From Symbiodinium natans (lineage: Eukaryota > Sar > Dinophyceae > Suessiales > Symbiodiniaceae), in the NCBI GenBank assembly GCA_905221605.1, contig CAJNDS010001413.1, positions 501,501 through 565,500 on the forward strand: a stretch of DNA of 64,000 nt, in the 5' to 3' direction. The first letter of the stretch is position 1; each line of letters opens with the position of its first letter. The notes below the pieces were generated by a model. It ran no database searches. It was not told the DNA's origin and saw only the letters and a list, made by a program, of their open reading frames with translations. Below, one piece after another: positions 619-9,630 of the stretch. The translations under genes and the position numbers were made by a program.

Positions 619-905
619 TTATTTTCGGTATACTTGGGAAGGCACACCAGAATTTAGATCGCCAAGTTGTCGATCAACTAAAAACACGGAAGTGATTAGA
701 TAAAACATCACATCCCCCAACAAAAGAGTGAGAGACAAGAACATGAAATGAAAGCATGCAATCACTCGGACAACCCTTCTCTTTTTTTACACAGACGGGG
801 GCGTGGCACGGTGAAGAGTGCTTGCATATAGCAAGAGAAAGTGGGCAATCCCAAAATCTCTGCTGCCCGAGAGCGCAGTCGCTCGAGTTGCCACCTACAC
901 CCCCA
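619..905 (-). repeat. B2 split direct repeat of element A
   Basis: A 287-bp segment repeated with essentially no differences at 1086-1372 (constant offset of 467 bp). It is the outermost 3' repeat of element A on the minus strand. Beyond 619 the sequence switches to the displaced RNase H end of element B, which marks the element boundary. Short ORFs in it are repeat translations without recognisable domains. Confidence 0.85.
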
Positions 906-1085
906 ATCAGGGAGGGCGGGCGGGACAAAATTTTGATCCTCTGAGCTGCACACAGCCACACTGCGACGGAGAGATCAAAATTCACATGGTGAACAAATCA
1001 ATCATGTTCATGAAAATTCATGCACCCATGAATTGCAAAAGTATAAATGAAAATAAGGTGCTGTCTCGCTTGCGAGAAGGCGCTC
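906..1085 (-). repeat. A2 split direct repeat of element A (core 930-1085)
   Basis: Positions 930-1085 match 9474-9630 with a substitution and a one-base indel. Read on the minus strand it contains an AT-rich stretch with a TATA-like tract, then CGCAG, then TGTGGCTGTGTGC. That CAG is the inferred spliced-leader acceptor site. A small inverted repeat, TCTCGC-TT-GCGAGA, lies at about 1065-1078 near the boundary with B1. A short C-rich linker (906-926) separates it from B2. Confidence 0.8.
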
Positions 1086-1372
1086 TTATTTTCGGTATAC
1101 TTGGGAAGGCACACCAGAATTTAGATCGCCAAGTTGTCGATCAACTAAAAACACGGAAGTGATTAGATAAAACATCACATCCCCCAACAAAAGAGTGAGA
1201 GACAAGAACATGAAATGAAAGCATGCAATCACTCGGACAACCCTTCTCTTTTTTTACACAGACGGGGGCGTGGCACGGTGAAGAGTGCTTGCATATAGCA
1301 AGAGAAAGTGGGCAATCCCAAAATCTCTGCTGCCCGAGAGCGCAGTCGCTCGAGTTGCCACCTACACCCCCA
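1086..1372 (-). repeat. B1 split direct repeat of element A
   Basis: Matches 619-905 and lies directly after the reverse transcriptase/RNase H stop codon (1379). It joins A2 at 1085/1086 without spacer. In PAT/Ngaro-type elements the internal B1-A2 junction is thought to template completion of the ends; the same geometry is seen here. Confidence 0.85.
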
Positions 1373-1378
1373 TCCAGG

Positions 1379-3508
1379 CTACGAGAGCATACTGCAGACT
1401 CGACCCCTCAAGCTAAGGTACGCGCGCCGCACCTGATCGCAGGGCAGCTTGAAGGTTTCGGGTAAGGCATCGCAGGACATACTGCGTGAAGGCGGATCGG
1501 CAATGTTGGATGCTGAGGGAACACGACAGAACCAGGGCATGATCATGTCGGTCTCACAAACAGTCGCACACACGTGGCAAATCCTGGTGACTGACATGGA
1601 TTTGGAGTAACCCTTGACCAAGGCGAACTTGGCGCCTTCGTTGTCATTGAAAGCTACCACGTTGGTGCTCCGTAGATGGCCCCTCCACAGTTGGATGCCA
1701 AGTAAGGTCGCCATTGTCTCGAGTTCGCCAATCCCGGTGCGGGCTGTGTGGGAAATGAGCGGCTGGATGTCATCAGCTGACAAAGGAAGGCAATAACACG
1801 ACTTCACCGAACCTAGGGAAGACACCAGCACCCCGCCTAAACCACCATCACCAGCGTCGTGGAAACATGCATCGGTGAAAAGGAACCACGTGTCCTTGGC
1901 AGTTGGTAACACACGCCGGGGAGAGCCCTCAACGATTCTTTGTCTCAAGTACTTCAGAGCACGGCTCAAGTCATCAGCAATGCGCGTCTTGAAAGGAATC
2001 GCATGGGTATGCGCAGACAGCAACTTCAAAGCAAATTTCCCCGAGTGACCGAGGACCTGTGCATCAGCGAAGGCCAGCTTGCCGCGCATCTCGAGCGATT
2101 GAGAATGATTGAGGGTCCCCCTTGCAAGTGCTTCGCTAACTAGGCTGTCTAGAGCATCTTTCCTTCTGAGGGTATTGTCCACAATGACCACACCGGAACA
2201 TGTCTCGGAAAGATCAAAGGCCACCCCGAGGGCTTCAACCCGGTCACTAAAAACGTCAGCTTTTGGACCGACCTCATCATACTGCCAGCCCAATAGGCGA
2301 AACAGCATCGCCATGGTCGTGTCGGTGTTGGCAGCAAGAGCGCATGTTGACGCAGAGATGAAGTCGTCGTAATAGGACGTCAGCGGCACAAGCAAGCACC
2401 GGAGTGCGATCCACTGGATGCACCTCGAGCACCTAATGAAACCATTGACTGATGCACGCGACCCAAATGGTAGGCAAGGCTGGTGAAATAGGTATGATTT
2501 CCCATCCTTTGGGCAGAACACCGCCACTATGGCAAAGCGTGACGACTCCCTCGACACACATAGCTGTCGATATGCGGATGTCAAGTCGTAAGACCTACCT
2601 AGGAGAGCACCTGACCTCCCCTTGCGCAACAAGCCGTTCGAGAGTTTGCTGAACATGGCGGCTGCCACGTCAGCAGTGTCCACGGTTGGCTGCTCAAGTG
2701 TGGTTACGCTGACGCCAGATCGAGAGTAGTCGTCGATCGGGCGCACTTTGCCATTCTGCAACAAAGGAAAGCGGGGTGATGCTATCTCCCCCGGGCCTAA
2801 GTCAGACCACTCGAGCGGTCCCTGCAACCATCCTTGTTCGACCTCCAGCAGGGTCTTCTCCCAAAGCTTCTCATCGAGCTCCGGATCGCCACAAGAACGC
2901 AAACTTGCACGCAAGGCATCATTGGCACGACACGCATTGGCACTAAGGGCCTCAGGCTCAAGAGAAGCAGGGGTGACCTTGCCAGGCAGCACACCAGAAG
3001 GCGGCGCAACTCCCACTAAGTCAAAACCATGGTGCATGTCCCTAGCTAGTGTGCAATCGCCGTACCCTTCCGATAAAAGGATCTCATCAAGCAGTTGCAG
3101 CCTCTTTCGTCCAAGGATAGCGCGCATTGCAGGATCTTGGATGTGCCAATCAGGATCAGGGTTCTCCTGGATGGCCTTGGCACGAGCCGTCCAATGCGCA
3201 AGCCATGCCGCACGCTTAGTGACAACTGAAGCCTCAGGCATGACAAGCAACGCGTCGACACACTCCTCCATGGCTTGGGGCAAGCTAGCAGCTACCATAG
3301 AGGCTCCTCGGATGCCCCACCTGCACGGCCTTGCGGACGAACTCGGCTTCAGAGTGGTAAACACCGAAGGTGTACAAGTGGGAATTGCATGCAGCCGCAG
3401 AAGCACAAGGTAGCTTAGAGCGCACGGGACCAGAGTCGGCGACATTTTCCAAGCGTTGCTTGACAGGTGCATCGTGGACTGGAGGCACAGTAGGGGACGG
3501 CGTGTCAA
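1379..3508 (-). CDS. Reverse transcriptase - RNase H of element A (frameshifted from its upstream part)
   Basis: Makes the DNA copy of the element and degrades the RNA template. Numbered from 3508, the polymerase has YDLTSAYRQ (D308) and the catalytic box YYDDF (379-383). The conserved fingers sequence SPRFPLLQNGKVRPIDDYS is near 244-262. The RNase H-like part has FTDACF (D546), an acidic GELE (about 594-597), FNDNE (D622) and NIADPPSR (D671), so all four acidic positions look present. There is no ATG: this frame opens with TTG and overlaps the upstream ORF. Alignment with element B shows the conserved N-terminal block ending in GHP still lies in the upstream frame, so a one-base frameshift near 3300 splits what was one polyprotein. 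The ORF ends seven bases before repeat B1. Confidence 0.85.
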   Translation of the reverse strand: MTRRPLLCLQSTMHLSSNAWKMSPTLVPCALSYLVLLRLHAIPTCTPSVFTTLKPSSSARPCRWGIRGASMVAASLPQAMEECVDALLVMPEASVVTKRAAWLAHWTARAKAIQENPDPDWHIQDPAMRAILGRKRLQLLDEILLSEGYGDCTLARDMHHGFDLVGVAPPSGVLPGKVTPASLEPEALSANACRANDALRASLRSCGDPELDEKLWEKTLLEVEQGWLQGPLEWSDLGPGEIASPRFPLLQNGKVRPIDDYSRSGVSVTTLEQPTVDTADVAAAMFSKLSNGLLRKGRSGALLGRSYDLTSAYRQLCVSRESSRFAIVAVFCPKDGKSYLFHQPCLPFGSRASVNGFIRCSRCIQWIALRCLLVPLTSYYDDFISASTCALAANTDTTMAMLFRLLGWQYDEVGPKADVFSDRVEALGVAFDLSETCSGVVIVDNTLRRKDALDSLVSEALARGTLNHSQSLEMRGKLAFADAQVLGHSGKFALKLLSAHTHAIPFKTRIADDLSRALKYLRQRIVEGSPRRVLPTAKDTWFLFTDACFHDAGDGGLGGVLVSSLGSVKSCYCLPLSADDIQPLISHTARTGIGELETMATLLGIQLWRGHLRSTNVVAFNDNEGAKFALVKGYSKSMSVTRICHVCATVCETDMIMPWFCRVPSASNIADPPSRSMSCDALPETFKLPCDQVRRAYLSLRGRVCSMLS

Positions 3509-4388
3509 CCCACGGCAACGGAAAGCCTAAGCTAAGCAGATAACGAACCTCTTTGGCACTGAGGGCACAACCCCTTTGCGGTGTGTAGCCAATCACCACG
3601 ACTCTTTGTCCATGCCACGGCATGACGCAATGAAACTTTCTCGCATCAAAGCGCACCGGGGCACTTGCAATGTCGTGCAACACCCCCGGCAGCTTACCTG
3701 ATGGCGTGTGCTTGTGAACTTTGCCCGCCGGGTCGTGAGCCCACACAAACCCTTCCGAAAAGTCCGAAAGTGCAACCCCATAGTTGAGTGTACCCTCTTG
3801 ATTGCACATATCTTTGTGCATGCCCTGCAACATATCGCAAAAGATAGCAACACATGAAAACCTGGCATCGGGGATCTGATGCCTGAGGAACCGGACCAGT
3901 GCTCGGGTGAACACAGGGAACATGGAAGCATTCTTTCGGACGCCGACACAGCCTCCCATGGCATAAGCACCTGATGACCAAGATTTTTCGCTCGCGCGAA
4001 TCCCGGCCATGCGTTTAGAGGGGTCAGCATCATGCAAAGCAAATATGCTCAAGAGCTCCTCCCGTGTGGGCACATCGCCCAGACGGCTGGCAGCCAGCTC
4101 AGCTTCATGCGAGAAAACATCCTGATTTGTGTCCACACACGATGCAGCACTCACCTTCTGTGGGTTAGGGCGCCCGGTCTCAGAACTCGTGACCATGGGC
4201 AGCTTAGAGAGCTTAGGGGAAGAGGAGTGGGCCGCGGACGTCGAGGCCGTAGTTAACTTAGGGTGAGGAAGGGAAGGTCCACAGAAGGGAGAATCAGATC
4301 CCCCCACTGCTGCACTTGCTCCTTGCATCCTTCCCCCGTTGAGAACCAGGGAGTAAGTGCTTGGATCCGGCAGGCACGCACACGTCAC
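3285..4388 (-). CDS. Oxygenase-like domain of element A polyprotein (2OG-Fe(II) dioxygenase-like)
   Basis: Middle part of the polyprotein between the methyltransferase-like domain and reverse transcriptase. Numbered from 4388 (GTG, so not a true start), it has MHKDMCN (H191-x-D193) and about 60 residues later FHCVMPWHGQR (H253 and R262) followed by VVVIGYT. This spacing, H-x-D then a distal H and an R on a beta-strand, is the metal- and 2-oxoglutarate-binding pattern of jelly-roll Fe(II) dioxygenases. The family includes AlkB, TET and JBP nucleic-acid oxidases, but the substrate here is unknown. The C-terminal 35 residues are homologous to the N-terminal block of element B's reverse transcriptase. 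The frame changes relative to its upstream neighbour near 4300-4390 and again near 3300; both look like inactivating indels. Confidence 0.55.
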   Translation of the reverse strand: MTCACLPDPSTYSLVLNGGRMQGASAAVGGSDSPFCGPSLPHPKLTTASTSAAHSSSPKLSKLPMVTSSETGRPNPQKVSAASCVDTNQDVFSHEAELAASRLGDVPTREELLSIFALHDADPSKRMAGIRASEKSWSSGAYAMGGCVGVRKNASMFPVFTRALVRFLRHQIPDARFSCVAIFCDMLQGMHKDMCNQEGTLNYGVALSDFSEGFVWAHDPAGKVHKHTPSGKLPGVLHDIASAPVRFDARKFHCVMPWHGQRVVVIGYTPQRGCALSAKEVRYLLSLGFPLPWVDTPSPTVPPVHDAPVKQRLENVADSGPVRSKLPCASAAACNSHLYTFGVYHSEAEFVRKAVQVGHPRSLYGSC

Positions 4389-5316
4389 CCACGACCAGCT
4401 CGTGCTTCAGTTTGCCGTCCTGAAGAGGGGGCAGCTCCGGGAGGCGAACATTGGCAATGCACTTAAACTCAGGCACCAGGCAAAGATGCGAACGTCGGGG
4501 CTGCAAGCGAGTGGGGCCGGGAGCGAGGGGCGGGAACCGCAAGAACCCGAGAATGGCAGTCCCCACAGCATCATAAAAGGCAGCAACAACCTCTGGAGGC
4601 ACACGATTGGTGGTTGTGGCAGTGGACACATGCACATGCTGACATGGAATAGCCAAATGACGGAATGCTTCCGGATGACGAGTGGCCAACCTGACAGGCG
4701 AGCGGTGCATATGGCCAAACTGGCACATGTTGACAGTAAGGGACGGCAGGGAGCTGGCCCACTCATCTTGCCAAAACAGAGATCGCTCACGACACTCAAG
4801 GGACCAAGGGGTAGAGGTGTCGTCGCAGTGTTTAATGAGTTGGCGGGTCAAAGACAACACAGCGGAGGCATCATCACCCAAAGGGCTTAAGTGGGCTTTG
4901 TGTGCAATCGGGAAGACAGTAGATGGACACCGAATGTGCACCCACAAGCACAGTTCCTCACGTGCCCATGAGGCACACAGCGCAAGCCCTGCAGGGCTCA
5001 AGAGATCGGCATGAACGATCGGGGCACGTGATGTGGCAGAACACCCGTAACCCACCCCAAAGGAACAAGGCAAAGCACGACGCACTGCAGCCGTGAATTG
5101 GGCATGTTTAGCAAAGACCTCAAGGCAAAAACCCCGCGGAGTCTCACCCACACATTGCGTGACGGGTTTAACAAGCCGAGGCACCTGGCTTTGCACATCA
5201 AAATCAACAGGCAACGAAGCACGATCAACGGCAGAACAAGGAAAATTGACATCATCGGTGGACGATGTAGGAACAGCGACAGCCACAAGGTCGCCTGTGC
5301 ACAGGTCTGCTGATAG
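4294..5316 (-). CDS. Degenerate C5-cytosine-methyltransferase-like domain of element A
   Basis: Follows Gag in the same frame after one TGA codon. Numbered from 5286, FCLEVFAKHAQFTAAVRRAL (53-72) resembles the SAM-binding motif I of cytosine-5 methyltransferases. WVHIRCPSTV (115-124) occupies the place of the catalytic Pro-Pro-Cys loop but is changed. WSLECRERSLFW (161-172) aligns with the ENP-x-S-x-FW block, and MCQFGHMHRSPVRLATRHP is a plausible motif VIII-like segment. A conserved LVPEFK follows near 270. The family is recognised by pattern only. Loss of the PPC loop suggests it may not methylate. There is no ATG, in line with translation by readthrough from Gag. A frameshift near 4300-4390 separates it from the oxygenase-like part. 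Confidence 0.55.
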   Translation of the reverse strand, partial: LSADLCTGDLVAVAVPTSSTDDVNFPCSAVDRASLPVDFDVQSQVPRLVKPVTQCVGETPRGFCLEVFAKHAQFTAAVRRALPCSFGVGYGCSATSRAPIVHADLLSPAGLALCASWAREELCLWVHIRCPSTVFPIAHKAHLSPLGDDASAVLSLTRQLIKHCDDTSTPWSLECRERSLFWQDEWASSLPSLTVNMCQFGHMHRSPVRLATRHPEAFRHLAIPCQHVHVSTATTTNRVPPEVVAAFYDAVGTAILGFLRFPPLAPGPTRLQPRRSHLCLVPEFKCIANVRLPELPPLQDGKLKHELVVGDVCVPAGSKHLLPGSQRGKDARSKCSSGGI

Positions 5317-5319
5317 TCA
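5314..5319 (-). promoter_or_regulatory. In-frame UGA-CUA at Gag/Pol junction (candidate readthrough stop)
   Basis: Gag ends with TGA at 5319-5317, immediately followed by CTA (5316-5314). The same frame then stays open into the methyltransferase-like domain. UGA followed by CUA is a well-known leaky stop context in plant and animal RNA viruses. Element B has the same TGA-CTA at its Gag end (12695-12690), also in frame with the next domain. Confidence 0.65.
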
Positions 5320-6534
5320 CTCAGCAGAAGTAGCAACGTCAGCAGCTTCATTGGCTTTCGGGCACAGGGAGAAGGGGTGCTTGCCATAGCAATTGGGTCT
5401 GCAACACACATGCTCGAACTTGCAAGCTTTGCCCTTTTTGCACTTGCCCAAGTTATAGTTGAAACAAATCGGCTTATTCTTGGGAGTCCTGCTATGGCAA
5501 CCCTGAAGCTCCTTGGGCACGGGATCGCGAGTGGTCTTGGCCTTCTTCTTGTCGCCACCTTCATCGCCATCGCCCGAATGCTTGCGCTTGTCTCCCTTGC
5601 CTTTGCCTTTGCCCTTGCCCTTCTCCGGTGTCGGCAGCAAGAAGTACATGATCTCAGTGTTGCCCGGCAAATTGCGAAACTCTGCATCCAGTGGCAGCGA
5701 GCCATCGGCGAGGGCTTTCAGCCTTCCATTGGCTCTCCGGGCCAACTCGACGAAGACCTGGCGATCTGCACGAAGGACCTGGGCACGAGAGACCCGGGAG
5801 AAGTTTGGAGGTGGATCCTGGTTCATCACATCGAACAGCCGCTCGATCCACTTCTGCATCACATCAAAGCTGGCGAGGCCCACTAGATCCATGGCCAAAG
5901 CGCGCCTCATGAAACTCAGGTAAAGTTCGTGATCTGAGGTGATGTTCATTGTATTGGTGATTTCCTCATCCTTCACGATGAGGCCCGACTTGCTTGCATC
6001 CAGCTGCACAGACTTCGGTGCCTTGCTGCCGGCCAACTCCTGATCCCGGGTGATGCATTCATCAGGTGGGACAAAGCGAAGCTCTTCGGTCTCTCTCATG
6101 TGAGCAAAACGATCGTAGAGGCTGTGCGCGCATTGCCATGCACCTTTGGCCAGAGGCAGTCCCTTCAAGCGAGCTGCTTGCTGCTCTATCCGCAGAGCAC
6201 GTTCTGCAGCCGGCAGCCTGCGTGGAGCATCTTCACCAACCTGCACCGAACTCCGAAGCTCGGCGATGCAAAGTGTCTGAGCTTCAAAGACCAAGCGCTT
6301 AAGTGCTGCATTGTCGCCCGAAGAGAGAGCAACACCGGGTCGAAGTTTGCCGGCAAAGTCCTCGATGTTGGTGTCAGTCGCGGGCGTGCCCGGTAAGCTG
6401 ACTGCATAGGAGACCTTGGACAAGGTGTCAACTTGCGCAGCGATCATCGCCTTGGTCCATTCATCAGAGAGGCCGACCTTTTCACATTGCTTCTCCAAAG
6501 CAGGCGTCGATGCCAACACGGAAGTGGCCGCCAT
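5317..6534 (-). CDS. gag: Gag of element A with CCCH zinc finger
   Basis: Predicted nucleocapsid/RNA-binding protein of the element. The first true ATG is at 6534; the frame is open to a TTG at 6552. About 405 residues. The centre is shared with element B's Gag (block QVLRADRQVF in A, QILRADKLAF in B, then the acidic segment LPLDA). A Lys/Gly-rich stretch (KGKGKGKGKGDKRK) precedes a zinc finger with spacing C-x7-C-x5-C-x3-H (from about residue 357) and a second Cys/His cluster, CCRPNC then H and C. It lies 296 bp downstream of the recombinase ORF and ends in TGA CTA in frame with the next domain, so a fusion product is likely. Confidence 0.75.
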   Translation of the reverse strand: MAATSVLASTPALEKQCEKVGLSDEWTKAMIAAQVDTLSKVSYAVSLPGTPATDTNIEDFAGKLRPGVALSSGDNAALKRLVFEAQTLCIAELRSSVQVGEDAPRRLPAAERALRIEQQAARLKGLPLAKGAWQCAHSLYDRFAHMRETEELRFVPPDECITRDQELAGSKAPKSVQLDASKSGLIVKDEEITNTMNITSDHELYLSFMRRALAMDLVGLASFDVMQKWIERLFDVMNQDPPPNFSRVSRAQVLRADRQVFVELARRANGRLKALADGSLPLDAEFRNLPGNTEIMYFLLPTPEKGKGKGKGKGDKRKHSGDGDEGGDKKKAKTTRDPVPKELQGCHSRTPKNKPICFNYNLGKCKKGKACKFEHVCCRPNCYGKHPFSLCPKANEAADVATSAE

Positions 6535-6830
6535 GTTGCTGTCTTGAGGCAAAATGCCTTATGAAGATGCACGCTGAGCAAGCATTCCATCCAGTTGGTT
6601 TGTATCAGTTCATAACAGGCAGCACAAGTGTGATGCGTTCCTAAACCAAATCCACAAACCCCACTGTCAAGACTCGGCTGCACACCACCACACACGAGTG
6701 CACTCAAAGTGGACGGCATATATCAAATCCAAGCACGATCAAATGCAAGCGACTCGCACACGAGTTTCTTTAGCTGCGTTCAGCCACGTTCAGAAAACAA
6801 AATTGCATCGGCTCCCCTCGTTCCACACCA
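6535..6830 (-). other. Spacer between recombinase ORF and gag of element A
   Basis: About 296 bp with no ORF I can support. It may contain the acceptor for a second trans-spliced transcript or an internal leader for gag; no specific motif is clear. Confidence 0.4.
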
Positions 6831-8987
6831 TCATGTGGATGCTCTGGGTGCGCTCAGCGCGTCTAAGGCAGCCACCATACCGCCTTTCGAGGTGATCAGT
6901 TCACCACGAAAACATGTCGAGCATCGTGTCCATTTCGACACAGAGCCCTCAGGAAGATACAGGTAGGCATTCCCACCCGTTCTACGCGAGCACTTGGTCA
7001 TCTCCGAGCCTTGCACCGCCTTGTGCAGCATCTTCGAACCTCTGTGCTGCCATAACGGGCCCGGCACATCAAAACTTTGGGCAGCTCCGGCATTCCGGAG
7101 GATGCCCTCCTCGGCAATCGATTGCCCTGAGGACGCATTGCTGTCACTTGAGCTACTGCTATCTGACTCATCGCTACTTGCACCCCCTGCATCGCGCTCA
7201 CACTCAACGCCGGGCAGGGCAGTGTTGTCAGGCAAGGCACCCCCCCAGGAGGGAGGGGATGTCTCATCATCGTGAACATCAGCATGATCCCGAACTCCAC
7301 CTTCCATAAACTCGCCAGGTGCATCCTGTGCAAGAAGCGGGCTCTCCGGAAACTCCTGTGGGGAGCGAGCGGCGCACGCACCAGCCTCTGGGCCCAACAT
7401 ATCGCTGGGAGACACGGCAGGTTCACTGGCAAGGATCCCACGTCGCTTCGGGTTATCAAAACGAAAGTCTGCATGTGAAGGTGCAAAAGCGGCGCAGTCG
7501 GACAACCAACCCGACCTGGAGGCATCTGGTTTGAACACCCCTGCTTTGATTTCCTTCAGCATGGCGACATAGGAGCGCAGCGGTGCGCTGAGAAGTTCAC
7601 GTGAGTAGACTGCACGCGATTTGGACCCAGTGACATGGTGACCCAACATCAAACAATCGAACTCGGGCAAACCCCTCTTGCCACACCAGTTCAGAGTGGT
7701 GACCTTGAGGGAGTGTGATGATACCCCTGAAGAAGCATCCACTTCCAAGGCACTCCGCAGGATGGCTGACGCCTCTGCGCTGCTGCATTTCCGCTTAGAG
7801 ACCCCTGAAAAACCCGGAACCCTCACCAAAGGTCCTAAGGGAGATGCATCCCACGGAAACCCAAGTTCGACGCCTGCTTGGTACCATGCACTGGCCCAGT
7901 CATGGCCTGACAAGCCGAACATGGGGGCAACCAGTGGCATGGCACGCTTGGCAGCTTTCTTGCAATTCCTAGTCTTGTGATGGGAGGTCTGTGCTTCAAT
8001 AAAACCTTCAGTAGGAGCCCCACATTCATCAAACAAGATAAAGTCAAGCAAGCGATGATCGGACCACCTCGATCTAGAGTATAACGTGAAGAGCATCCCG
8101 CCCAAAAGGAACTTGTCTTGCACACAAGTCTCGCTGGAGGTCGTTCGAATTTCAAGTTGGATGACTTGCTCAACACGCAATGCTGTGGCTTGCTTCAGGG
8201 GACCACTATCAGCAATCAGCCTCTTCGCCCTGCCCTGAAGGCGCCTGTCGCTCAAGATCTCAGCACTAAAGGGGATGTCAACCACATGATGCGCAAAATT
8301 GATGGCCTGAAACAGAGTAGCAGTGGCACTTGCATACCCTTTAGTACCCTTTAGTGACTCGATATAACACGAAAGAGACTTGATGCTCCAGGGCCACGGG
8401 GACTTGCCTTGCTCTACATGCCACCGGAAGCAACGCAACAAGTCATTGGCTCTCTTTGACGCTGTTCTAGGTGCCTTCAACCCCAAGACATCACGGATGA
8501 TGTCTTCCCGAGCATTGCCGTCCTCGGACCAGAAGCTGTCCTGAAGCATGGCACCTGTGCTTCCCTGGTGCTCGCACAAAATGAACACAGTAACCCACTT
8601 ACTCAAAGCGGTGTTCCAAAGGTGCTCATCACTGTCAGCATTTTCATCTCTGGAAGCTTTAGCAGAACACTCATGAAACAAATGCGCATGCTTGCGTTTC
8701 CCAGAAGCACTCTGCACGGGCGCAGGTTCCGGCGGAGGGGAGGCAACCCCAGGTATGGGCACAAGAGAAGGTTGCCTCAGCACTGGTGGAGACAACACCC
8801 CGGCCATTCCCTCACCAAAGATGGCATTGAACGATCCGGTTTCCCAAGGGAACTTAGGCATGTTGTCAGGAATTGCAGCAAGCTGTGCCTCCACAAGCAA
8901 CCTGTCGATGTCAAAGCAGCTAACCTCCCCCCCTTGAGAAGCTGATGTAGACATGGGCGGTGCGGAACTTGAGCCGGGTGCGGACAT
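6831..8987 (-). CDS. Tyrosine recombinase of element A
   Basis: Integrates the circular cDNA by DNA strand exchange, replacing the integrase used by LTR elements. ATG at 8987, 718 residues. Box I is YSRSRWSDHRLL (about 303-314, R307 the likely catalytic Arg). A downstream SHHKT gives a candidate Lys. Box II is SSHSLKVTTLNW with H425 and K428, where most tyrosine recombinases have HxxR. LGHH (448-451) and AVYSRE (nucleophile Y461) complete the set. The block FKPDASRSGW after the Tyr is also found in element B (FPDQTRSGHF). The tail from about 500 is low-complexity and acidic, then ends in a Cys-containing segment (C...CSTCF) resembling that at B's C-terminus (QCSKCF). First gene of the element; no frame damage seen. 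Confidence 0.85.
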   Translation of the reverse strand: MSAPGSSSAPPMSTSASQGGEVSCFDIDRLLVEAQLAAIPDNMPKFPWETGSFNAIFGEGMAGVLSPPVLRQPSLVPIPGVASPPPEPAPVQSASGKRKHAHLFHECSAKASRDENADSDEHLWNTALSKWVTVFILCEHQGSTGAMLQDSFWSEDGNAREDIIRDVLGLKAPRTASKRANDLLRCFRWHVEQGKSPWPWSIKSLSCYIESLKGTKGYASATATLFQAINFAHHVVDIPFSAEILSDRRLQGRAKRLIADSGPLKQATALRVEQVIQLEIRTTSSETCVQDKFLLGGMLFTLYSRSRWSDHRLLDFILFDECGAPTEGFIEAQTSHHKTRNCKKAAKRAMPLVAPMFGLSGHDWASAWYQAGVELGFPWDASPLGPLVRVPGFSGVSKRKCSSAEASAILRSALEVDASSGVSSHSLKVTTLNWCGKRGLPEFDCLMLGHHVTGSKSRAVYSRELLSAPLRSYVAMLKEIKAGVFKPDASRSGWLSDCAAFAPSHADFRFDNPKRRGILASEPAVSPSDMLGPEAGACAARSPQEFPESPLLAQDAPGEFMEGGVRDHADVHDDETSPPSWGGALPDNTALPGVECERDAGGASSDESDSSSSSDSNASSGQSIAEEGILRNAGAAQSFDVPGPLWQHRGSKMLHKAVQGSEMTKCSRRTGGNAYLYLPEGSVSKWTRCSTCFRGELITSKGGMVAALDALSAPRAST

Positions 8988-9457
8988 CAGACGGCACTCT
9001 GATCAAGCAGACAGCTGCAAGAGCTGTCGGGTGCACGCGTGGATCCTGTGGCCACTGCAAGCCAAACGGAACCAAGCCTGGGGACTAAGGCACAAGAAAA
9101 TCCTGGAGCCCTCCGCAGTTGACAACAGAACCCCGGAAAAGGAGCTCTCGAGCACGTAACTGAAAAGGTCAGGGGGCGCAGCCACTCGGCGCTCAAGCAG
9201 GTCAAGACGGAAGCAGCGAGGCCGGATGAGGACTGCTTGGAATGCAACACGCTGAGGCAGAGGCGGCCAATCCCAGCTGATGCTCGAATCGCTCGAAGAC
9301 GAGCTGGTGTCCATCCGCTGAGACCACCCGGGGTCTCAGCTTGCACGACCCCTAGAGGGAAGACCCTTAGCGCCCAGGACCTCCAGAGCAGCGGCACCCT
9401 TACGAGATTAGCGGAGCCCCAACAAAATTTTGATCCTCTGAGCTGCACACAGCCACA
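8988..9457 (-). other. 5' leader of element A
   Basis: Untranslated leader upstream of the recombinase ATG. Its first part (9457-9423, minus) repeats the 35-bp exon start TGTGGCTGTGTGC... found after the acceptor in A1 and A2. An open minus frame runs through it, but its first part simply translates the terminal repeat and I see no domain. Confidence 0.5.
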
Positions 9458-9473
9458 CTTGAGCCAAAATGGC
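9458..9473 (-). other. Spliced-leader relic (dinoflagellate SL, 3' 16 nt)
   Basis: The minus strand reads GCCATTTTGGCTCAAG, identical to the last 16 nt of the conserved 22-nt dinoflagellate spliced leader. It is followed at once by TGTGGCTGTGTGC, which in repeats A1 and A2 directly follows CGCAG. Thus an mRNA of this element was trans-spliced at that AG, and its cDNA was fixed in the genome. Similar relics are known in dinoflagellate retroposed genes. Confidence 0.85.
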
Positions 9474-9630
9474 ATTTTGATCCTCTGAGCTGCACACAGC
9501 CACACTGCGACGGAGAGATCAAAATTCACATGGTGAACAAATCAATCATGTTCATGAAAATTCATGCACCCATGACTTGCAAAAGTATAAAATGAAAATA
9601 AGGTGCTGTCTCGCTTGCGAGAAGGCGCTC
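9474..9630 (-). repeat. A1 split direct repeat of element A (promoter/outron candidate)
   Basis: Matches A2 (930-1085). Being at the 5' end of the minus-strand element, it should hold the promoter and the outron that is removed by trans-splicing. It includes an AT-rich stretch with a TATA-like tract and the acceptor CGCAG before TGTGGCTG. The hairpin TCTCGC-TT-GCGAGA lies near 9609-9622. At 9630/9631 it abuts element B's RNase H with no duplicated host bases beyond an AT dinucleotide. Confidence 0.75.

What the first reader, a model, noticed from the sequence alone, without database searches (positions are those of the whole stretch)
3285..5316. Cytosine-methyltransferase-like and 2OG-oxygenase-like domains side by side in a tyrosine-recombinase retroelement
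Element A Pol starts with a C5-methyltransferase-like domain (motif I-like FCLEVFAKHAQ, ENP-like SLECRERSLFW), followed by a domain with HKD, then FH...R at the spacing of Fe(II)/2OG dioxygenases, then reverse transcriptase. One family writes cytosine methylation and the other includes enzymes that oxidise it (TET/JBP). Methyltransferases have been reported in dinoflagellate retrotransposons, but I know of no description of this pair. A role in escaping or rewriting host DNA modification is a hypothesis only.
Basis: partly seen in the sequence, partly recalled or inferred. Interest (0 to 1): 0.85.

Follow-up and report, generated by a model that had tools for sequence, protein, structure and literature searches.

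The report
Retrotransposon with methylase-like and oxygenase domains
In what appears to be a dinoflagellate genome, a tyrosine-recombinase retrotransposon carries a cytosine-methyltransferase-like domain and an iron-dependent oxygenase domain in front of its reverse transcriptase; many related elements carry the same pair, often with both active sites intact, which suggests a mobile element that can mark its DNA and then chemically alter the mark.

Summary

In this family the methyltransferase has lost its catalytic Cys and four other motif residues: a pseudo-enzyme. The oxygenase keeps HxD...H...R, as do 20 of 20 rows; 16 of 19 methyltransferase rows keep the Cys.

The pair is a widespread module: 77 of 131 listed methyltransferase loci have the oxygenase within 1.5 kb, in both orders. 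Copia-like elements carry the oxygenase alone. One more distant family pair gives dN/dS near 0.05 for both domains.

TET/JBP membership is not shown. Dinoflagellate retrotransposon methyltransferases are known (SymbioDIRS-Dnmt3), but none of 117 listed PF00145 places lies within 5 kb of these. I found no report of the pair. Function is inferred.

The parts
619..9630 (-). whole DIRS-type element A (9012 nt), 5' end at 9630 and 3' end at 619
   Evidence: split direct repeats A-coding-B-A-B in the window; the same arrangement in the copy on C2162 (L009/L045)
9474..9630 (-). 5' repeat A (157 nt)
   Evidence: 98.7% identical to 930-1085
9458..9475 (-). dinoflagellate spliced-leader relic, 2 mismatches over 18 nt, between two copies of a 33-nt stretch of repeat A; not in the one other copy examined
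   Evidence: the leader sequence is recalled; 0.08 matches expected by chance for up to 3 mismatches, and a second match with 3 mismatches lies at 6560-6543
6834..9002 (-). tyrosine recombinase ORF (723 aa; stop ends at 6831)
   Evidence: R312, K343, H430-x-x-K433, H456, Y466 invariant in 10 of 10 sequences aligned
5320..6558 (-). Gag-like ORF with a C-terminal CCCH zinc finger (413 aa)
   Evidence: CCCH Pfam matches below their cut-offs; homologous ORF in relatives
4426..5154 (-). C5-methyltransferase-like domain; fold kept, active site lost (pseudo-enzyme)
3492..4070 (-). Fe(II)/2OG oxygenase domain; H, D, N, H, R at codons starting 3818, 3812, 3803, 3632, 3605
1382..3526 (-). reverse transcriptase / RNase H part of Pol (frame-shifted relative to the oxygenase in this copy)
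   Evidence: continuous with MT and OX in L009; no Pfam match of its own, but relatives hit RVT_1 1e-5 (L022) and RT_RNaseH 5.3e-5 (L013), just under the cut-offs
1086..1378 (-). first copy of repeat B (293 nt)
   Evidence: 99% identical to 619-911
930..1085 (-). internal copy of repeat A
619..911 (-). terminal copy of repeat B

Best explanation
Shown: the region is the N-terminal part of the Pol polyprotein of a DIRS-type retrotransposon and carries a two-domain accessory module, a C5-cytosine-methyltransferase-like domain (MT) plus an Fe(II)/2OG oxygenase domain (OX), ahead of RT/RNase H. The module recurs across diverse DIRS families of this genome in both orders and is under purifying selection where that could be measured. 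Inferred, and the mechanism I think most likely: the module travels with Pol and acts on the element's new cDNA (or on host DNA at the target). MT methylates cytosines and OX oxidises them (5mC to 5hmC or beyond), as phages do with separate C5-methyltransferase and TET/JBP enzymes. The element's DNA is thus given a mark that host methyl-readers do not treat as plain 5mC or plain C. In the window's family MT is dead but structurally kept, probably for DNA binding or architecture, so its OX would have to use methylation laid down by others. OX is the conserved core of the module.
Against: OX occurs without MT in 4 of 20 loci fetched through OX (Copia-like), and MT without a detected OX in 3 of 8 loci fetched through MT, so neither needs the other in cis. 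The window family's MT is dead. TET/JBP membership of OX is not shown: 4 of 18 members touch Tet_JBP, none over its cut-off, and one reaches PF13640 exactly at its cut-off. Foldseek lists also hold PiuC, 8w8h, PHD1 and a viral prolyl hydroxylase, and the Foldseek alignments of these two-domain models have high rmsd (mostly 6-15) and TM-scores under 0.5 for most rows. No relative of OX in IMG/VR or phages by sequence. No substrate, expression or activity data.
Confidence: 0.43

Rival explanations
1. OX is a JBP-like thymine oxygenase: it makes 5-hydroxymethyluracil in the element or in repeats at large, and MT is an independent passenger. Retroelement oxygenases would then be one source of the 5hmU of dinoflagellate DNA.
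For: OX is found with and without MT and in two orders of retrotransposons; two searches list 229 distinct OX loci. 5hmU replaces 12-70% of thymine in dinoflagellates (PMC6723414 passages) and is enriched on repeats in Breviolum (PMC11071213 passages, abstract among them). A phage JBP1/TET protein is the best-placed oxygenase with a name in the BFVD list.
Against: The linkage with a C5-methyltransferase points to cytosine. The presence of 5hmU in this species was not tested. Tet_JBP matches are weak.
Confidence: 0.2
2. OX is an AlkB-type demethylase that protects or edits the element's RNA or cDNA, as the m6A demethylase of orchid Ty3/Gypsy elements does.
For: The top Foldseek match of the L028 model is human ALKBH2, E=5.6e-6, and E. 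coli AlkB stands second for the window-family model, E=8.1e-5. Precedent in a retrotransposon: PMC9289625 (abstract and section list seen).
Against: hhalign of the OX profile with E. coli AlkB scores 12.8, not above 40 column shuffles (maximum 16.0). The oxygenase rows among the 50 VIA rows of the window-family model are NgTET1 (three entries) and 6n1f, not AlkB.
Confidence: 0.14
3. OX is a prolyl/lysyl-type protein hydroxylase (PKHD, 2OG-FeII_Oxy_3) acting on Gag, Pol or a host protein, for example in particle assembly.
For: hhalign with E. coli YbiX (annotated PKHD-type hydroxylase) scores 29.9, E=7.5e-4, probability 25%, 49 columns, against 17.0 at most in 40 shuffles, with the second His and the Arg in register. 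Copia-borne member L019 hits PF13640 at its cut-off, E=9e-6. Foldseek lists PiuC (E 4.5e-5), 8w8h (first for the window-family model, 7.2e-5) and prolyl hydroxylases.
Against: Most rows at E<=0.001 that are oxygenases are nucleic-acid enzymes. The domain is joined to a DNA-methyltransferase-like domain and RT inside Pol.
Confidence: 0.19
4. The domains are functionless remnants or chance resemblances.
For: In the window copy the Pol frame is broken and MT is degenerate.
Against: 1321-aa frames in other copies, dN/dS well below 1 in the pairs with enough changes, metal ligands invariant in 20 of 20 rows, significant profile and fold matches.
Confidence: 0.03

Closest known systems
SymbioDIRS-Dnmt3 (de Mendoza et al. 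2018, PMC5890265; abstract and section 6 read, passages elsewhere)
   Same: DIRS retrotransposon of Symbiodinium with a cytosine-methyltransferase domain in Pol next to RT, a separate tyrosine recombinase ORF and A-coding-B-A-B repeats; two domain orders reported there too.
   Different: Their DNMT is Dnmt3, and their domains are named as in Pfam searches (PF00145). Here 0 of 15 MT members match PF00145 at E<=1, and none of 117 listed PF00145 places in this genome lies within 5 kb of the 132 listed MT places. Their main text holds no occurrence of TET, dioxygenase or oxygenase. Their figures and supplements were not seen, and they grade DIRS by DNMT conservation, so overlap with weakly scoring DIRS of theirs cannot be excluded.
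TET+ DNA transposons and Helitrons of fungi (Kojima 2025, PMC12730594; passages seen)
   Same: A mobile element encodes a 2OG oxygenase of the TET/JBP kind, thought to counter or rewrite methylation.
   Different: Those are DNA transposons; [quoted passage not shown] Here the oxygenase, of unsettled subfamily, sits in retrotransposon Pol beside a methyltransferase fold.
Phage C5-methyltransferase plus TET/JBP hypermodification pathways (one passage in PMC12730594; details recalled)
   Same: The same two chemistries act in sequence on cytosine of an invader's DNA.
   Different: Separate phage genes in a cytosine hypermodification pathway with glycosyltransferases; here a fused eukaryotic polyprotein, and I did not look for a glycosyltransferase.
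AlkB-bearing orchid Ty3/Gypsy elements (PMC9289625; abstract and section list seen)
   Same: A 2OG oxygenase acquired by a retrotransposon.
   Different: AlkB type, separate ORF, shown to demethylate m6A in RNA; no methyltransferase partner mentioned in the abstract.
Naegleria TET1 (4lt5, 5cg9, 5cg8)

Membership tests
DIRS-type retrotransposon | tyrosine recombinase with R, K, HxxK/R, H, Y residues | tested here: met
   R312, K343, H430, K433, H456, Y466 invariant in 10 of 10 sequences; role of these residues recalled. No Pfam match and no recombinase in the PDB profile search
DIRS-type retrotransposon | split direct repeats A-coding-B-A-B | tested here: met
   second copy
DIRS-type retrotransposon | reverse transcriptase and RNase H in Pol | tested here: met
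   relatives hit RVT_1 1e-5 and RT_RNaseH 5.3e-5, both just under Pfam's cut-offs; RT of 13 of 16 MT+OX loci similar to the window RT
C5-cytosine DNA methyltransferase | SAM fold of the C5 type | tested here: met
   [not shown]
C5-cytosine DNA methyltransferase | motif I Gly, motif IV Cys, motif VI Asn, motif VIII Arg, in relatives of the window family | tested here: met
   17, 16, 17 and 17 of 19 rows; motifs I and IV in register with Dcm (weakly, clearly)
C5-cytosine DNA methyltransferase | the same residues in the window's own family | tested here: not met
   motif I Gly, motif II Asp, Cys, Asn and motif VIII Arg all replaced; Glu kept
C5-cytosine DNA methyltransferase | match to PF00145 | tested here: not met
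   0 of 15 members at E<=1; PHROG 'DNA methyltransferase' phrog_757 hits 5 of 15, best 3.5e-6
SymbioDIRS-Dnmt3 | DNMT domain recognised as DNA_methylase/Dnmt3 | tested here: not met
   0 of 117 listed PF00145 places within 5 kb of 132 listed MT places; both lists are lower bounds
Fe(II)/2OG oxygenase superfamily | 2OG-oxygenase fold | tested here: met
Fe(II)/2OG oxygenase superfamily | HxD ... H metal triad and 2OG-binding Arg | tested here: met
   20 of 20 rows; register of the second His and the Arg with YbiX
TET/JBP | match to Tet_JBP (PF12851) | tested here: inconclusive
   4 of 18 members, best E 0.024, none over the cut-off; no PF12851 match at E<=1e-3 in the genome search, but the control genomes were silent too
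TET/JBP | closest fold is a TET/JBP enzyme | tested here: inconclusive
   [not shown]
TET/JBP | oxidises 5mC or T in DNA | not testable with these tools
   needs biochemistry
AlkB | sequence-profile similarity to AlkB | tested here: inconclusive
   hhalign score 12.8 against shuffle maximum 16.0 (single template); ALKBH2 nevertheless tops Foldseek for one model and AlkB is second for the other
PKHD / 2OG-FeII_Oxy_3 | match to PF13640 or a known PKHD-type hydroxylase | tested here: inconclusive
   1 of 18 members at the PF13640 cut-off, E 9e-6; YbiX hhalign score 29.9 against shuffle maximum 17.0, probability 25%

The most novel reading that the evidence does not exclude
A retrotransposon polyprotein with a built-in write-then-oxidise cassette for cytosine: a divergent C5-methyltransferase and a TET/JBP-like oxygenase fused in Pol, shuffled in both orders across DIRS families, with the oxygenase also present in Copia-like elements. 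Retroelement oxygenases would then be a major source of oxidised pyrimidines (5hmC or 5hmU) in dinoflagellate DNA.
Probability: 0.33. Interest if true: 0.92.

Novelty: new variant of a known kind. Interest (0 to 1): 0.78.

Why it matters
Retrotransposon-borne DNA methyltransferases are known in dinoflagellates, and TET/JBP oxygenases are known in fungal DNA transposons; a methyltransferase fold and a 2OG oxygenase together in a retrotransposon polyprotein I have not found described (searches; held open-access library only, mostly listings). If the oxygenase works on DNA, it gives a direct test of how a retroelement rewrites host epigenetic marks, and a candidate enzyme for the long-standing question of who makes the oxidised pyrimidines of dinoflagellate genomes.

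Tried and rejected
Direct Pfam scans of the window ORFs found nothing for MT, OX, RT or YR at E<=1. PDB sequence search with OX gave two chance rows; with MT nine weak rows, three of them DNMT2-type, best E 0.068. PHROGs with OX gave scattered hits; NCBIfam with A3 gave five single-member hits, two of them other SAM methyltransferases (E 2.9e-4 and 6.5e-4). Pfam with MT gave single weak hits, Methyltransf_23 and _25 among them. IMG/VR scans found no relative. Phage tblastn: nothing for OX (L019); for MT (L024) two Rhodococcus phage methyltransferases over 27% of the query, E 1e-3 and 2e-3. An argument from the invariant Asn three residues after the metal Asp was dropped: I recall the same spacing both in TET2 and in PHD2, so it does not discriminate, and the paper search for it listed only clinical papers. 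CpG o/e was compared over loci without a clear pattern. AlkB was lowered as a reading. CcTet and human TET2 stand in the Foldseek lists but not among the 50 VIA rows shown for the window-family model; that is no evidence against them. No TET/JBP sequence was at hand, so OX was never compared with one by hhalign. The H-to-R spacing printed is 9 or 10 in all 20 rows, but my expression caught a wrong His in the L042 row (its first interval reads 26); the alignment column counts do not depend on it.

Rows dropped before counts: from A3, near-duplicate copies (L001-L008, L014, L020, L021, L026, L029-L036 and the window rows), the OX row of L037, and the divergent MT rows of L011, L015 and L017 (these three keep PPC and E in A2). 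Of the dN/dS pairs, those other than L037/L043 were either too close (few changes) or saturated; two pairs with one non-synonymous change each gave 0.17 and 0.28. Loci L009-L028 were chosen through OX and L037-L044 through MT, so fractions among them are biased, and some are near duplicates (L013/L014, L023/L026, L018/L021, L019/L020). One search uses all listed places, which are lower bounds; MT places of the window's own family are not among them, as the MT query was L028.
Full report
What is there. On the minus strand of window 9630-619 lies one DIRS-type element of 9012 nt: a 157-nt repeat A (9630-9474), a tyrosine recombinase ORF, a Gag-like ORF with a CCCH finger, Pol, then B-A-B repeats (1378-1086, 1085-930, 911-619). 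The finding's interval is the N-terminal part of Pol. In the window copy Pol is cut by frameshifts into three overlapping ORFs (5316-4294, 4406-3285, 3526-1379). In other copies of the same family it is one open frame, 1321 aa in four listed copies and 1334 aa in a fifth, and the copy on C2162 shows the same A-coding-B-A-B ends. The genome (759 Mb, 2543 contigs) looks dinoflagellate: its DIRS elements resemble those described from Symbiodinium, and a spliced-leader relic lies at 9475-9458 (leader recalled).

Active sites. H, D, N, H and R of OX are kept in 20 of 20 rows. Of 19 MT rows, 16 keep the catalytic Cys and 17 the motif I Gly, the ENP Asn and the motif VIII Arg; L013 has His for Cys, and L016 and the window family have each lost five of the six positions examined. 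Of 15 loci with both rows in A3, 12 keep the Cys together with the OX residues. The window family's MT is thus a pseudo-methyltransferase on a preserved fold. It still shows some constraint between copies (dN/dS 0.20 and 0.29 for MT, 0.04 and 0.20 for OX in two comparisons; few substitutions). In a more distant pair, L037/L043 (dS 1.15 and 1.03), both domains show dN/dS near 0.05. That is one pair of families; the rest of the pairs were too close or saturated.

A shuffled module. Of 20 loci fetched through OX matches, 16 carry MT and OX in one ORF (13 of them with an RT similar to the window's) and 4 carry OX without MT in elements with a Copia-type RT: RVT_2 is over its cut-off in L018, below it in L019 and L020 (E about 2e-6) and weak in L021 (0.0022). 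Of 8 loci fetched through MT matches, 5 also carry OX and 3 show none in the stretch fetched. Genome-wide, three searches list 229 distinct OX loci and 131 MT loci; 77 of the 131 have OX within 1.5 kb on the same strand (63 OX-first, 14 MT-first), against 0 with the OX strands flipped. These are lower bounds, since the search scores only the best candidates.

What is known. de Mendoza et al. 2018 (PMC5890265; abstract and section 6 read, passages elsewhere) described SymbioDIRS-Dnmt3 with two domain orders and showed that retrotransposon DNMTs methylate CG de novo. Their domain names follow Pfam. Here no MT member of 15 matches PF00145, and 0 of 117 listed PF00145 places lie within 5 kb of the 132 listed MT places or of the 150 OX places. 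So this MT is either a separate or a much diverged lineage; their supplements were not seen. [quoted passage not shown] it also notes phage C5-methyltransferase plus TET/JBP teams. Orchid Gypsy elements carry an AlkB m6A demethylase (PMC9289625, abstract). I found no report of a methyltransferase-oxygenase pair in a retrotransposon in the searches; these cover one open-access library, and most papers were seen as listings only.

How it may work. Shown: folds, residues, linkage, constraint. Inferred: DNA as substrate (from the C5 fold, from nucleic-acid enzymes making up most of the structural oxygenase list, and from the place in Pol next to RT) and the order of reactions. Sites where either copy has CpG hold 26 of 58 substitutions between the window copy and L009 Pol although CpG makes up 11.8% of the window copy's bases, as expected if these elements are methylated at CG. 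The main rivals are a JBP-like thymine oxygenase, a PKHD-type protein hydroxylase and an AlkB-type demethylase. The sequence evidence leans to PKHD/PF13640 and the structural evidence to TET and AlkB types; I could not decide.

Verdict. The claim that this element writes methylation fails for its own family and stands as plausible for most relatives examined. The TET/JBP label remains a hypothesis.

Noticed in passing
window 15363-9674, minus strand: A second, broken DIRS-like element upstream of element A: RT 11377-9674 (RVT_1 2.6e-5, under its cut-off), MT-like pieces in 12692-11445 and 15363-14803, Gag-like 13532-12714, YR-like pieces 14663-14121; no OX detected.
   Followed up: partly
window 9506-9427, minus strand: A spliced-leader relic joined to a second copy of a 33-nt stretch of repeat A, whose first copy follows CAG, looks like the trace of a trans-spliced element mRNA copied back into DNA; absent from the one other copy examined, C2162.
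   Followed up: partly
L018, L019, L020, L021: Copia-like elements (RVT_2) carry the same OX domain upstream of RT, without MT; L019/L020 have CCCH fingers too, and similar OX matches lie in very long open frames (up to 4751 aa, that one not fetched).
   Followed up: partly
L011, L015, L017: A divergent MT subtype with EHPE in place of ENP and an insertion, in Pol frames whose RT blastp did not link to the window's.
   Followed up: no
L016:1694-5455 and L013:2703-6626: Two further families with damaged MT active sites (L016 five of six positions, L013 Cys to His) but intact OX, which suggests that MT activity was lost more than once.
   Followed up: partly
L038, L044: DIRS families with canonical MT before RT and no OX in the stretch fetched.
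   Followed up: no
whole genome G000: 117 listed PF00145 places, some in open frames of 1500-1900 aa; none within 5 kb of the MT places or the OX places.
   Followed up: no
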